Assembly (NCBI GenBank): GCA_018798825.1
Contig: CP076355.1
Span: 526,001-590,000, forward strand
DNA length: 64,000 nt
Origin: Ochrobactrum sp. BTU1
GTDB taxonomy: Bacteria > Pseudomonadota > Alphaproteobacteria > Rhizobiales > Rhizobiaceae
Direction: 5' to 3'
The position numbers and the translations under genes were made by a program. The notes beneath the pieces are model-generated. The model saw only the letters and a list, made by a program, of their open reading frames with translations. It searched no databases and was not told the origin of the DNA. Positions 20,196 to 37,546 of this stretch are shown here, piece by piece (position 1 is the first letter of the stretch; each line of letters opens with the position of its first letter).

Positions 20196-20378
20196 ATGTG
20201 GATCATGCTTACGGATGTCAGCGGCGAGAGGGTTGCAGTGAACTTCAATCACGTCCTGTCATACAACGCTTACGGCACTGGAACCCGTATCGTTACGCTC
20301 AGCGCAGACCTGACATTTTTCGTTAAAGAGTCGACAGAGGAAATTGAAACCAAGCTTGGCATTGACGTCAAGAATTGA
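20196..20378 (+). CDS. Small conserved-looking protein, FlbD-like pattern
   Basis: 60-residue protein with a strong ribosome site (GAGGAGG, eight bases before the ATG). Its layout is a short beta-rich protein: MWIMLTDVSGERVAVNFNH, then a middle strand, then FFVKESTEEIETKLG. The VKES-EEI ending and length recall the FlbD family of small flagellar proteins, but no flagellar genes are near, so I do not assign that name. It may be a stand-alone regulator or an uncharacterised Rhizobiales protein. Confidence 0.7.
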   Translation: MWIMLTDVSGERVAVNFNHVLSYNAYGTGTRIVTLSADLTFFVKESTEEIETKLGIDVKN

Positions 20379-29026: not shown

Positions 29027-29102
29027 GAGCGCGTAGCTCAGCCGGTAGAGCAACTGACTTTTAATCAGTAGGTCCAGGGTTCGAATCCCTGCGCGCTCAC
29101 CA
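29027..29102 (+). tRNA. tRNA-Lys (anticodon TTT)
   Basis: 76-base tRNA with encoded CCA. The acceptor stem GAGCGCG pairs with CGCGCTC. The D arm contains TAGCTCAGCCGGTAGAGCA. The anticodon stem ACTGA/TCAGT encloses CTTTTAA (anticodon TTT at 29060-29062), and the T arm contains GGTTCGAATCC. It marks the edge between the dense core block on the left and the sparse accessory region on the right. tRNA genes of this kind are common integration sites, but I saw no repeated 3' end further on. Confidence 0.97.
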
Positions 29103-32834: not shown

Positions 32835-33707
32835 GTGAAAATTACAGGCATTATGCTGCAGCGCGATGAAATTGACGTTGTCCTTTTTAACGTTTTGCAT
32901 CACCTAAATACTCTTGGGTTTTCTCGTCTTATCATCGGCGATAATGGATCTACTGACGGCTCAAGAGAGGCACTTCGGCGGCTCGAAAAGCGTGATCCGC
33001 GCTTATTGGTTGTTGATATGCCGGGTGAGTTTGCTCAGGCAGATAGGACAAATCTATTATATCAAATTGCTATCGATAATGGAGCGGACTGGGTAGTTCC
33101 CTTGGATGCCGACGAATTTCTCTCAGTGAATCGTAACGAATTGAACGATGTCCTGAAGAAAAGCGATGACCCTGCTGTCCACATGCGAATTCGAAATTTC
33201 GCTCAAACAAGAAGAGCGGAAAGAATGAGGATGCATAACCTCGCGAGCATGTATTATGCAGTTCCTCCGAGCGCCACCGCCGCAGATGCGATGAATTACG
33301 TCCTTGAAGGAAAGATTTCATTTCTTGAGAGCATTTATCCACCAAAGTACATTTGGAGGGCAGATAAAGCGTTGTTGATCGCCAAAGGCAACCATAAAGC
33401 AAATATAGACCTTCCCGACGTCAAGTTTTCAATTGACTTAAATCATGCACCTCTACGGTCAAAGTCGGCTATTTCAGACAGAATTGTCAGAATTTCCCGC
33501 CTTGAGGAGGGGCCGCCTACCCAGTCATGGCATATAAAACGACTAGCTTTCGTAGACATTGAAGAAGAATGGAGACGTAGTTCCGTTTCAAATGGCCATC
33601 TAGATGTTAAGGATACCCGACGCCGACTGCAATTTGCCCCGTTCTTCCTAAAGGTATTTTTAAAACATGCACTATCAGTGCGTAGTCTAGTAAAATCCGC
33701 CTCCTAG
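32835..33707 (+). CDS. Glycosyltransferase family 2-like protein, copy 1
   Basis: 290-residue GT-A fold protein of the Glyco_tranf_2_4 type. The N-terminus MKITGIMLQRDEIDVVLFNV, the nucleotide-binding turn IIGDNGSTDGSREALRRLE and the metal-binding DADEF in DWVVPLDADEFLSV are clear. A conserved HAPLRSK motif lies near residue 215. No membrane helix is seen, so it is a soluble transferase. The acceptor is unknown and no polysaccharide genes surround it. A GTG start with AGGGGCAAGGC upstream is used. It is closely related to the second copy at 34301. Confidence 0.88.
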   Translation: MKITGIMLQRDEIDVVLFNVLHHLNTLGFSRLIIGDNGSTDGSREALRRLEKRDPRLLVVDMPGEFAQADRTNLLYQIAIDNGADWVVPLDADEFLSVNRNELNDVLKKSDDPAVHMRIRNFAQTRRAERMRMHNLASMYYAVPPSATAADAMNYVLEGKISFLESIYPPKYIWRADKALLIAKGNHKANIDLPDVKFSIDLNHAPLRSKSAISDRIVRISRLEEGPPTQSWHIKRLAFVDIEEEWRRSSVSNGHLDVKDTRRRLQFAPFFLKVFLKHALSVRSLVKSAS

Positions 33708-34300
33708 CCGGAGCCCAGCTTAAAAAGAAAACTCCGGATAGTTGGGGGCGATCCGGTGCCGCGCTCACCGATCGATCTGGAACTGTTAAAACGCTCGCTG
33801 ATGATCTTACAGCCTCAGGAAAAGACAATGCATTGCACGAGCTTGCGAGCATTTCCTAGCGTTGCTGTGTGCTGTTTTAACTTGAATGAAATTGACGAAT
33901 GGGCTCACCAGGGTCTGTGTCGCAATATTCTGCCCGTGCAATGCAGTTTTGAGAGCGCGCTTACTCAACGCCAGCTCCTACGTTCCAACCGCTCCGGTTA
34001 GAGGTCTCGGTTAAAGCGGGTGGTGTCGGGTTTTGGAACACCTAGACTGTGTATTATCGTTCCGGACATATAGATAGCCGACTGTGCCGTAAGCCAGTAT
34101 CCGGCCGAACGCAGGGCCAGTACGAACATCAACGTTTCCAATCAATGTGGCTTTCGCTTCTACTTCCACGTGCCCATCCCAAATGTAGGGAAAATTCGAG
34201 AGAATATTGTTTGATGCTTTCAAATCAGCCTTGATAATTTCGTCGTATTTCGGCAGAGCAGCGATAAATTTCAATCATGGGTTGATGTGTGCAGGCGAAG
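33708..34300. other. Spacer between the two glycosyltransferases
   Basis: 593 bases with no gene I can support. Short frames exist on both strands. One on the minus strand (34011-34274) has a beta-barrel-like ending (FGRILAYGTVGYLYV) that may be a scrap of an outer-membrane protein, but there is no signal peptide and no family match that I can defend. Confidence 0.4.
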
Positions 34301-35170
34301 ATGAAGATAATCGGTATTTTGCTTCAGCGAGATGAGATCGATGTCGTATTGTTCAATGTCTTGTATCACCTGAACGTCGTTGGCTTAGACCGACTTATTG
34401 TAGGCGACAATGGTTCAACGGACGGTTCAAGGGAGGCACTTCACAAGCTCGAGCGGGTCGATCCACGCCTTATCGTCATCGATATGCCAGGTGAATTCGA
34501 ACAGGCCTTGAGGGTGAATGAGCTTTATCAACTTGCCATAAGTTTGGGCGCAGATTGGATTTTACCTCTAGATGCCGACGAATTTTTGCCGATGAAAAGA
34601 TCAAAATTAGCAAATGTTCTGCGTGAGACTGACAGCTTGGCCGTTGAAATGGAGATAAATAACTTCGTCCAAAGGCGCGGTGCTTTGCATAAGCGTCTAC
34701 GCAACTTAGCCAGCATGCTTTACAGAGCCCCAATTTTGGGTTCGAAATCGGAAGCTATGGCTCTCGTAAACTCTGGTGAAGTCGGATTTGTTGAAGCTGC
34801 ATATCCCCCTAAATTCCTATGGCGAGCCAATAAGCAGCTTTCGCTTTTGAAAGGAAATCACGGCGCTGACATCTGTCTAGGGAATGTACCCATCTGCATC
34901 CCTCTCTACCACGCGCCGTTAAGGTCCAAGGCGTCTATTTTTTCTCGGGTTGCAAGCATTGCTCGACTAGAGAGCGGAACGCCCGACACTGCCTGGCATA
35001 TTAAACGTTTGATAGACGTCAACGTGGAAGAAGAATGGCGCCGAAATTCGTATAAGCGTGGTCAGGTGGGTACGAATGCCGAGAAACACCGACTAGAGTT
35101 CGATCCCTTCTTCCTGAGAGTGTTCTTACGATACTATTTGAAAGTTATCCGACTGGTTCGACAGAATTGA
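34301..35170 (+). CDS. Glycosyltransferase family 2-like protein, copy 2
   Basis: 289-residue paralogue of the preceding transferase, alignable end to end: MKIIGILLQRDEIDVVLFNV, IVGDNGSTDGSREALHKLE, DWILPLDADEFLPM, HAPLRSKASIFSRV, WHIKRLIDVNVEEEWRR. By eye well over half of the residues agree. The start at 34301 follows GCAGGCGAAG; four extra codons upstream are open. The metal-binding DADEF is intact. Two copies in tandem without other sugar genes suggest duplication within the accessory region. The target could be O-antigen or another surface glycan, as inference only. Confidence 0.88.
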   Translation: MKIIGILLQRDEIDVVLFNVLYHLNVVGLDRLIVGDNGSTDGSREALHKLERVDPRLIVIDMPGEFEQALRVNELYQLAISLGADWILPLDADEFLPMKRSKLANVLRETDSLAVEMEINNFVQRRGALHKRLRNLASMLYRAPILGSKSEAMALVNSGEVGFVEAAYPPKFLWRANKQLSLLKGNHGADICLGNVPICIPLYHAPLRSKASIFSRVASIARLESGTPDTAWHIKRLIDVNVEEEWRRNSYKRGQVGTNAEKHRLEFDPFFLRVFLRYYLKVIRLVRQN

Positions 35171-35924: not shown

Positions 35925-36540
35925 TTATTGTAATATTTTGCTTAAAGCTCAGTAAATCGACGTGGTTAATCATCCGTATCCGTCAGAGAAGTTGACACTC
36001 TGCAATCAGATTTTCTCAACTTCCAGGGGGGTACCCATCTGGAATGGGTTTAGGAGGCTGGTTTTACCCCACATCAATTTCTAGGATTGCTTCGTATGAA
36101 CATCCATCCGAAAAATTCCCGACATCGACCGTTACGTCGAGAAGAAGCGGCTGTCAGTTTCACGGTGGCACGCAACAAAAGCTTACGTTTCTTTTTCCGC
36201 TTGTATGATTGTGGAGTTGAAGGAATTCGGCAGTGTTGCGTCGCTTTCATACTCACCACAAGAGCATTTGCATCGTTGAGTGTTTGAACTCCAAGGCTTT
36301 AAACTTAGATCGGCTAAAGCGGGTGAACGAGGAATGGTTCTTCATCGTCAACGGGTACTGTTATTAATGGATGCTCAAAGTGAAGGGGCTGAAAGAGAAT
36401 AATCGATCCATTCCTCGAATTGCTGATATCCATCCCGGTTCCGTTATTCTCCAGGAGTGCTTGCAACAACTCTTTCAGGCTGTCGACCTTACTCGAAGAG
36501 TGAGACACAGTTTTGATCGATCGGGAGGTGACAGACTTAA
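35925..36540. other. Intergenic stretch without a supported gene
   Basis: AT-rich DNA with only short, compositionally random frames on both strands and no clear repeats. It separates the 59-residue membrane gene from the sRNA terminator end. Confidence 0.5.
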
Positions 36541-36662
36541 AACAAGAACGCCCGCTGCACTGGGAGGAGGAGTGTGCAGCGGGCGGATCTGGAAAGCGCG
36601 GCGATTGGGAGGAGGAGTGCCACGCTTCGAGTTCAGCCTCTGGGAGGAGGAGTGAGGCTGGA
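36541..36662 (-). ncRNA. Anti-Shine-Dalgarno sRNA, alpha-r14 / cuckoo type
   Basis: Three successive stem-loops each show the loop ACTCCTCCTCCCA on the minus strand. Plus-strand stems are: 36550-36560 with 36574-36584 (GCCCGCTGCAC, 11 bp perfect); 36594-36602 with 36619-36627 (AAGCG and GGC, one mismatch); 36634-36640 with 36654-36660 (CAGCCTC, 7 bp). The stems differ in sequence while the 13-base loop is identical, the mark of a selected loop. After the last hairpin the minus strand reads GTTCTTGTTTT, so it doubles as the terminator. CUCCUCCC loops define the alpha-r14 and cuckoo (CcsR) sRNAs of alphaproteobacteria, which pair with Shine-Dalgarno regions. The 5' end is estimated at about 36662. 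Confidence 0.85.
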
Positions 36663-36753
36663 CAATATAAAAATAGGTCACTGGTACGATGATTACAATG
36701 AGCAATGTTGCACACTAGGTATGCGGTGGATGCATAGTGGCTCATTAAAATGG

Positions 36754-36790
36754 AAAACCGCCCGGCAGCGCCGAAGCGCGCGCAGGCGGC
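36754..36790 (-). terminator. Terminator-like hairpin upstream of the sRNA
   Basis: On the minus strand CCGCC pairs with GGCGG outside an inner GCGC-TTCG-GCGC stem, followed by TTTTCC. It could end a leftward transcript just before the sRNA promoter and insulate it. Confidence 0.55.
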
Positions 36791-36906
36791 CTTATCCTCC
36801 CAGATAACCGTCACTAGCAGTATTGAATTAGTAAATCAACAAGTACCGTCAAGTACATAATCATACTAATTTAGTGAGATTTATCTTTGTTCTTGAAGGT
36901 ATCATT

Positions 36907-36996
36907 GGGCGCGGTCGCCCATCTTCATGTGGCCCGTATCGCGCTTTGGGCGGGGGGCTTGGGTTGCGCGATACGGGTGCAGTCCTGCGAACAGGA
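36907..36996. other. Strongly structured element of three hairpins
   Basis: Three hairpins in 90 bases: GGGCG/CGCCC (36907-36920), a perfect 12-bp stem CCCGTATCGCGC with GCGCGATACGGG (36933-36977) around a G-rich 21-base loop containing a run of six G, and TCCTG/CAGGA with a CGAA tetraloop (36983-36996). There is no U run on either side, so it is not a simple terminator. It may be a structured RNA, a mobile palindromic repeat of the kind common in Rhizobiales, or a protein-binding site. From 36997 to 37546 nothing else is seen. Confidence 0.5.
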
Positions 36997-37546
36997 TGCC
37001 TACATTAAATAAGTATTATCGTCGAATTCCGAAATGACAGTTTGTTGCAGTTGAAAATGGTTAGTGCCGCAACCAAAAGCTTCCGTGTTGAGAGGACTTG
37101 CAAAACGAATGCGTATGGTCCCCCGCTGAACTCAGCGCGCAGTTAAAGTGTAACGTCAATGGTCTTAATCAATAAGCATCATCCGGCAGCTTTGTGCAGC
37201 AATGTCGCTAAGGTATCAAAGCGCAGACAATTTAGAGCAGGTTTGTATCATGACGCACTGGCGATTGGCATGCCTGTCTAAAAGTGAGTATTAGACGGTG
37301 ATTTACTTCTGACGTTGATATCGAGAATGGTTGGGAGCTTCCATCGAGATCTTGCTACACGAGCGGCTAAGAAAAACAGTTGAAGATGCGAGAACAGTGA
37401 ACTGTTATCACCGACCGCCGGTCAGCAAAAACGCACAGCTCCCTGTGCCGATTATTTGAAGTCTATGCGAACAATAGCCTGTTTAGACAATTATAGGCCG
37501 ATTTCATTGCGATGAATATTTGCACATCGAGGGTACTGATCTGAAC

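What the first reader, a model, noticed from the sequence alone, without database searches (positions are those of the whole stretch)
36541..36662. Triple-hairpin sRNA displaying three identical anti-Shine-Dalgarno loops
Seen directly: three adjacent stem-loops with different stems but the same 13-base loop, which on the minus strand reads ACTCCTCCTCCCA; the last hairpin is GC-rich and followed by GTTCTTGTTTT, a terminator. Loop identity with stem divergence is the signature of selection on the loop. Established knowledge: CUCCUCCC-loop sRNAs (alpha-r14, NfeR1, CcsR/cuckoo RNAs) in alphaproteobacteria bind Shine-Dalgarno regions of many mRNAs. Inference: this copy sits in an accessory region, so it may be an extra, horizontally moved member acting as a broad translation regulator. 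The extended CUCCUCCUCCC is longer than the minimum motif and could pair with GGAGGAGG sites such as that before the small gene at 20196.
Basis: partly seen in the sequence, partly recalled or inferred. Interest (0 to 1): 0.75.

Follow-up and report, generated by a model that had tools for sequence, protein, structure and literature searches.

The report
ar14 sRNA with a decoy-like neighbour
The three-hairpin sequence belongs to a known family of bacterial regulatory RNAs thought to block ribosome-binding sites, and just upstream of it sits a short RNA element that itself looks like a ribosome-binding site and may soak the regulator up.

Summary
Minus-strand 36545-36670 is a full-length match to Rfam ar14 (RF02344; 76.2 bits, cut-off 58.8) and folds into three hairpins with one shared loop (z -8.3). 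CCUCCUCCC loops on diverged stems define this published family (PMC10746234, passages), so the RNA itself is a new member of a known kind. The genome holds 6 ar14 matches. This copy has a LysR-type box like NfeR1's and shares only about 420-540 bp with related loci in other surroundings: "extra, moved copy" is partly supported.

The new part lies just upstream: a candidate RNA ("U2", 36749-36811), GGGAGGA (complementary to the ar14 loops) followed by a terminator hairpin. A U2 model gives 57 matches of at least 52 bits in 31 of 35 genus genomes; 56 of 57 lie 59-215 nt upstream of an ar14 copy, same strand. Best reading: ar14 with a co-located Shine-Dalgarno mimic, probably a sponge, as with Caulobacter CrfA. 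Against it: one U2 subtype has little exact complementarity, six of 62 listed ar14 copies lack a strong U2, covariation is limited, and no expression data were seen.

The parts
36539..36664 (-). ar14-family sRNA, three hairpins, about 126 nt (ends inferred)
   Evidence: Rfam RF02344 36545-36670, 76.2 bits; fold z -8.3; 5' end inferred from promoter-like spacing, 3' end from the terminator tail
36641..36653 (-). loop 1, ACUCCUCCUCCCA anti-Shine-Dalgarno
36606..36618 (-). loop 2, same 13 bases
36561..36573 (-). loop 3, same 13 bases, in the terminator hairpin
36671..36698 (-). promoter-like TTGTAA-N16-CTATTT of the ar14 copy
   Evidence: a like pair (CTTGTAA...CCTATT) stands at this place in many same-subtype copies; the consensus scan found no sigma-70 hit
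36721..36734 (-). TGCA-N6-GCAT LysR-type box, as reported for the NfeR1 promoter
   Evidence: sequence; motif from PMC10746234 passages; binding not tested
36749..36811 (-). U2: candidate companion RNA, Shine-Dalgarno-like 5' part plus intrinsic terminator-like hairpin (5' end inferred)
   Evidence: model R1 match 36749-36807, 64.8 bits (this sequence was in the model); linkage 56 of 57; terminator scan lists one site, 36769-36757 (-), inside it
36795..36801 (-). GGGAGGA of U2 (TGGGAGGA with the preceding base), complementary to the ar14 loops
36933..36977 (-). U1: second conserved hairpin with C-rich loop (AAGCCCCCCGCCC), candidate separate RNA
36536..37075 (-). block shared with related loci whose available flanks differ (ar14 + U2 + U1)

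Best explanation
The finding is an ar14-family trans-acting sRNA with its own promoter; its three identical loops pair with Shine-Dalgarno regions and block translation initiation (inferred from published family work on NfeR1). Its locus is a two-RNA unit. Directly upstream, a short RNA (U2, about 60 nt) shows GGGAGGA/GGAGGAG in a 5' segment before a terminator hairpin. U2 most likely acts as a sponge: it mimics a Shine-Dalgarno site, pairs with the ar14 loops (and possibly with other anti-SD sRNAs, such as the DUF1127-linked copies), and titrates or destabilises them when its own promoter is on. Shown: family membership, conservation of U2, its tight linkage to ar14, and complementarity in two of three U2 subtypes. 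Inferred: transcription, pairing in the cell, direction of effect.
For: ar14: (76.2 bits); over the cut-off in 35 of 35 genus genomes and 73 of 81 drawn at family level, own genome included. U2: this genome has exactly 2 strong matches (65.8 and 64.8 bits; next 25.2), each just upstream of an ar14 copy; in the genus 57 matches of 52 bits or more, next 31.7, and 56 of 57 lie 59-215 nt upstream of an ar14 place on the same strand. Its helix forms in 98.5% of cells, with 11 cells changed on both sides against 4.3 in shuffles (see against). At least 7 nt of exact complement to the loop within 300 nt upstream: 41 of 56 subtype-B copies, against 2 of 56 downstream of them, 0 of 39 DUF1127-linked-type copies, 4 of 23 subtype A, 0 of 43 copies in the 30 best loci from other genera; mononucleotide shuffles 5-10%. 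23 subtype-2 loci share TTTCAGTA..TGAAA, TTGCTTT and TTATT with variable spacers between, as a promoter would. One genome (G041) has U2 with those blocks but no ar14 after it, so U2 looks like a unit of its own. 31 of 32 U2 forms in which a purine motif was found have no start codon 3-12 nt after it. Precedent: CrfA, a G/A-rich sponge of the anti-SD alphaR8 sRNAs (PMC12559287, section 7).
Against: No transcript of either RNA was seen. Subtype-3 U2 has 7 nt or more of exact complement in only 1 of 11 forms (8 of 8 and 14 of 14 in subtypes 1 and 2, but those classes were partly defined by the motif); in 9 of these 11 forms at least 9 of 200 composition shuffles pair as well with the loop. Six of the 62 ar14 places that I listed lack a strong U2 match, one of them in this genome. 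Covariation is limited: the number of pairs changed on both sides (3) and of further pair types (6) is reached by 210 and 418 of 500 shuffles. Copies are related, so counts are not independent events. GGAGGAG also pairs with the 16S anti-SD. In several U2 forms the motif is partly paired in the predicted fold. The promoter of the window-type U2 is not clear.
Confidence: 0.45

Rival explanations
1. Ordinary ar14 copy; U2 is only a conserved terminator or insulator of an upstream transcript with a purine-rich lead and does not act on ar14.
For: U2 ends in an intrinsic terminator-like hairpin; subtype 3 has little complementarity; ar14 copies exist without U2; covariation is limited; no expression seen.
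Against: Linkage 56 of 57, promoter-like blocks conserved between variable spacers in subtype 2, U2 present where no ar14 follows, and the unit staying together where flanks differ are more than a terminator needs.
Confidence: 0.27
2. U2 is a real sRNA but its motif serves another partner: the 16S anti-SD, alphaR8- or AbcR-type sRNAs, or a protein.
For: The motif also pairs with the 16S anti-SD (typed from recall), more weakly than with the ar14 loop in 32 of 33 forms, and with the UUUCCUCCCU core published for alphaR8 (PMC12559287); subtype 3 diverges.
Against: Strong matches are linked to ar14 copies specifically.
Confidence: 0.17
3. U2 acts in cis: read-through transcripts pair GGAGGA with the downstream ar14 loops and tune termination or ar14 processing.
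For: Fixed order and strand, 59-215 nt apart.
Against: U2 has its own terminator-like hairpin and, in subtype 2, a promoter-like upstream region, and many ar14 copies have their own box; U2 stands without ar14 in G041.
Confidence: 0.08
4. Not a functional RNA (a chance or decayed repeat).
For: At least one copy in the genus has damaged loops (G043).
Against: All three loops, the stems, the LysR-type box and the terminator are intact in the window copy.
Confidence: 0.03

Closest known systems
ar14 family (RF02344), NfeR1/Smr14C2 of Sinorhizobium meliloti
   Same: Three hairpins, CCUCCUCCC in each loop, variable stems, terminator, TGCA-N6-GCAT box upstream, several copies per genome (six in S. 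meliloti, PMC7143759 passages; six here)
   Different: Carries U2 immediately upstream; none of 43 ar14 copies in 30 loci from other genera has 7 nt or more of exact loop complement upstream
CcsR / cuckoo RNAs with DUF1127 protein (CIN1 locus)
   Same: CCUCCUCCC loops; two other copies in this genome follow a DUF1127 gene
   Different: No DUF1127-like ORF seen just upstream of the window copy (by eye); 20 bits against a CcsR1 cut-off of 65.3
CrfA sponge of SisA-D (alphaR8), Caulobacter crescentus
   Same: G/A-rich RNA complementary to the anti-SD core of a family of sibling sRNAs
   Different: Other sRNA family; the text read (abstract, passages, section 7) does not place crfA beside its targets, whereas U2 adjoins ar14; U2 drew only chance-level Rfam scores
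CJnc190/CJnc180 of Campylobacter jejuni
   Different: There the partner is antisense (section title in the outline); U2 is upstream on the same strand and does not overlap

Membership tests
ar14 (RF02344) | covariance-model score over the curated cut-off | tested here: met
   76.2 against 58.8 bits, full length
ar14 (RF02344) | three hairpins with identical CCUCCUCCC loops and variable stems | tested here: met
ar14 (RF02344) | Rho-independent terminator in hairpin 3 | tested here: met
   GC-rich stem then GTTCTTGTTTT by eye; the automatic scan allows loops of 3-8 only and did not list it
ar14 (RF02344) | own promoter with conserved upstream LysR-type motif | tested here: inconclusive
   TGCATCCACCGCAT fits TGCA-N6-GCAT, about 57-70 nt before the inferred start; core hexamers weak, promoter scan negative
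ar14 (RF02344) | trans-repression of mRNAs by anti-SD pairing | not testable with these tools
   needs experiment; published for NfeR1
CcsR / cuckoo | downstream of a DUF1127 gene | tested here: not met
   no DUF1127-like ORF by eye among those listed at 36660-37100 (not scanned with Pfam); met for L002 and L006
CcsR / cuckoo | CcsR1 model over cut-off | tested here: not met
   20 bits against 65.3
sponge RNA (U2) | complementarity to the seed of the sRNA | tested here: met
   8 nt in the window form; weak in 10 of 11 subtype-3 forms
sponge RNA (U2) | separate transcript | tested here: inconclusive
   terminator-like hairpin and, in subtype 2, promoter-like blocks; no RNA data
sponge RNA (U2) | binds and antagonises the sRNA in the cell | not testable with these tools
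   needs experiment

The most novel reading that the evidence does not exclude
A relocatable two-RNA control unit: an anti-Shine-Dalgarno sRNA (ar14) encoded together with its own Shine-Dalgarno-mimic sponge, each with a separate promoter, so that the pair sets a threshold for repression of many mRNAs and moves as one module of about 0.5 kb.
Probability: 0.35. Interest if true: 0.7.

Novelty: new variant of a known kind. Interest (0 to 1): 0.45.

Why it matters
The sRNA alone adds one more copy to a known family. If U2 is a sponge, the locus would suggest how bacteria with several near-identical anti-SD sRNAs, which could in principle hit many mRNAs, keep them in check, and would be a case of a regulator and its decoy inherited side by side. 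The prediction is simple: one short transcript, one pairing of about 8 bases.

Tried and rejected
A plasmid search with 501 bases around the locus found nothing. A genome-contig scan with the neighbouring glycosyltransferase found no relative. The sigma-70 scan found no promoter. The 'extended motif' as a special feature was rejected: it is the family loop. A Shine-Dalgarno of a small ORF was rejected for U2: 31 of the 32 forms with a motif lack a start codon 3-12 nt after it; the 33rd form had no motif to test. Pairing between U1's C-rich loop and the GGGGGCUU of subtype-3 U2 was considered by eye and dropped, because the two seem to occur mostly in different genomes. Weak R1 matches outside the genus (11 places, best 34.2 bits) had no ar14 over the cut-off in the loci scanned (10 of the 11; the other overlaps one scanned; one own-genome place also scanned). 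No tree of copies was built, so transfer between species is not shown.

Prior description of U2: literature searches were (PMC open-licence full text only; not all aimed at U2). None of the titles and abstract openings listed, nor the passages I read, describes an SD-like RNA upstream of ar14. Subscription papers, among them the first NfeR1 paper, were not seen. Papers opened: PMC10746234, PMC7143759, PMC3927594, PMC10253847 (passages found by term); PMC12559287 (abstract, passages, section 7); PMC8687705 (abstract, outline). The rest were seen as listings only.

Full report
Observation. The 13-mer ACTCCTCCTCCCA occurs three times on the minus strand, at 36641-36653, 36606-36618 and 36561-36573, and not elsewhere in the window. 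The stretch folds into three hairpins with different stems, -54.8 kcal/mol, z -8.3 against 200 dinucleotide shuffles. Rfam ar14 covers 36545-36670 end to end at 76.2 bits, cut-off 58.8.

Identity. Published work describes ar14 sRNAs as three hairpins, each with the identical ultraconserved CCUCCUCCC motif in its unpaired region, with stems that differ (PMC10746234, passages; PMC7143759, passages; loop noted in 2011, PMC3927594, passages). NfeR1 uses its three motifs redundantly against translation initiation regions, and its promoter holds TGCA-N6-GCAT, bound by LsrB. The window copy has TGCATCCACCGCAT at 36734-36721. This genome has six ar14 matches, the same number as reported for S. meliloti.

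Copies and subtypes. All 35 same-genus genomes searched have ar14 over the cut-off, as do 73 of 81 genomes drawn at family level, own genome included. By eye the genus copies fall into four kinds: A (L001-like), B (the window, C2:806014 and C4:345109 in this genome), and two kinds like L002 and L006, which follow a DUF1127 gene (Pfam 63.2 and 55.6 bits), matching the DUF1127-CcsR association described for alphaproteobacteria (PMC10253847, passages). An exact pattern of the three loops finds 13 loci in named genomes: 12 are titled Brucella or Ochrobactrum and one is a Hyphomicrobiales MAG (lineage looked up for one of them). The species of the window is not known.

Place in the genome. The block shared with related loci is 36536-37075; nothing else in the 64 kb window matched the loci compared, which carry up to 10 kb on either side, one of them (G045 C48) ending at a contig edge about 0.3 kb beyond the RNA. 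Among 11 such loci, one set of four and one set of three keep synteny within the set over about 7-19 kb, but the window copy, two copies in G045 and one in G046 share only about 130-540 bp with the others, and a G001 copy about 120-190 bp. GC is 46-49% from 32 to 39 kb, 49-52% to the left and 53-54% from 40 kb; a tRNA-Lys lies at 29027. This fits an accessory region and a relocated copy; it does not show transfer between species.

The companion. Seven aligned loci share a block, U2, just upstream of ar14 on the same strand, and six of them (the seventh is cut by a contig end) a further block, U1. U2 is GGGAGGA followed by a GC-rich hairpin and a T-rich tail. 46 of 48 B-type copies, deduplicated by core sequence, have this hairpin upstream. 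I built a model from 26 of the 33 distinct forms. In this genome it finds two strong places, 65.8 and 64.8 bits, both just upstream of ar14 copies; the next is 25.2 bits. In 35 genus genomes it finds 57 places at 52 bits or more in 31 genomes, then drops to 31.7; 56 of 57 lie 59-215 nt upstream of an ar14 place on the same strand. The model was built from ar14-linked forms, so finding those forms again is expected; the informative part is that strong unlinked matches are nearly absent, with the limit that the tool scored only up to 150 candidates per genome after a loose first look. The exception, G041, has U2 and its upstream blocks but no ar14 after it. Of 62 B-like ar14 places that I chose (not exhaustive), six lack a strong U2: one in this genome (C4) and one each in G001, G004, G043, G049 and G050. 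Outside the genus, none of 79 genomes drawn at family level had a match above 34.2 bits (up to 68 candidates scored each).

Is U2 an RNA? Its helix forms in 98.5% of cells (shuffle mean 95.0), with 11 cells changed on both sides (shuffle mean 4.3) and a covariation score above all 500 shuffles; but the number of pairs changed on both sides (3) and of further pair types (6) is reached by 210 and 418 of 500 shuffles, so covariation is limited. Sliding the partner gives 0-5 such cells. In 23 subtype-2 loci TTTCAGTA..TGAAA, TTGCTTT and TTATT are invariant between variable spacers; CTTGGAGGAG is invariant there because I selected on it. For window-type loci the promoter is less clear. 31 of 32 forms with a motif have no start codon 3-12 nt after it. 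The terminator scan lists one site in 36400-36900, inside U2 on the minus strand, against 0.3 expected.

Does U2 fit the ar14 loops? The window form has TGGGAGGA, 8 exact bases against UCCUCCCA. Subtype 1, 8 of 8 forms, and subtype 2, 14 of 14, have at least 7 exact bases (classes partly defined by the motif); subtype 3, 1 of 11. Predicted duplex energy with one loop is -14.5 to -22.5 kcal/mol in subtypes 1 and 2, where 0-13 of 200 composition shuffles do as well, and -4.4 to -15.7 in subtype 3, where 0-102 of 200 do; in 32 of 33 forms the loop pairs better than the recalled 16S anti-SD. An exact complement of at least 7 bases within 300 nt upstream occurs in 41 of 56 B copies, against 2 of 56 downstream of them, 0 of 39 copies of the DUF1127-linked kinds, 4 of 23 A, and 0 of 43 copies in the 30 loci held from other genera; copies with under 150 nt upstream were dropped; mononucleotide shuffles give 5, 6, 10 and 8% for the four groups. 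These copies share ancestry, so the counts are not independent.

Mechanism. Shown: an ar14 sRNA gene, an adjacent conserved RNA-like element tightly linked to it, and complementarity between them in two of three subtypes. Inferred: both are transcribed; ar14 blocks translation starts; U2 titrates ar14. [quoted passage not shown] The weak fit of subtype 3 is the main result against a pure sponge reading; it could mean a changed partner, or that pairing to ar14 is not the function.

Verdict. The finding as stated is correct in the main and describes a known family. The upstream companion is, within the literature searches named under Tried and rejected, undescribed, and makes this locus worth a second look.

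Noticed in passing
window 36933-36977 (-) and the stretch upstream of it to about 37075: U1: a hairpin CCCGTATCGCG...CGCGATACGGG with a C-rich loop (AAGCCCCCCGCCC), in most copies preceded by a GGTTGC..GCAACTGCAACAAACTGTCATTT-like block. An exact pattern finds it at 9 places in 6 of 35 genus genomes, 7 of the 9 upstream of ar14 copies and 2 (in G010 and G019) without ar14 within 800 nt downstream. No Rfam match over cut-off. Possibly a third small RNA.
   Followed up: partly
L040, L046, L051, L080, L083, L087, L092, L095 (relatives): Two B-type ar14 genes facing away from each other, less than 1 kb apart, each with its own U2, in at least eight genus genomes.
   Followed up: no
L002 and L006 (same genome, C1:891979 and C2:961814): A DUF1127 gene followed by a four-hairpin and a three-hairpin anti-SD RNA, which also score over the ar14 cut-off, so that the ar14 model alone does not separate the two kinds.
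   Followed up: partly
L192 (G043:C3, 3.3 Mb genome): The ar14 copy has shortened loops in hairpins 1 and 3 and no U2 match, as if decaying in a small genome.
   Followed up: no
window 32835-33707 and 34289-35170: Two similar family 2 glycosyltransferase genes (Pfam PF13704) in the lower-GC stretch beside the sRNA.
   Followed up: no
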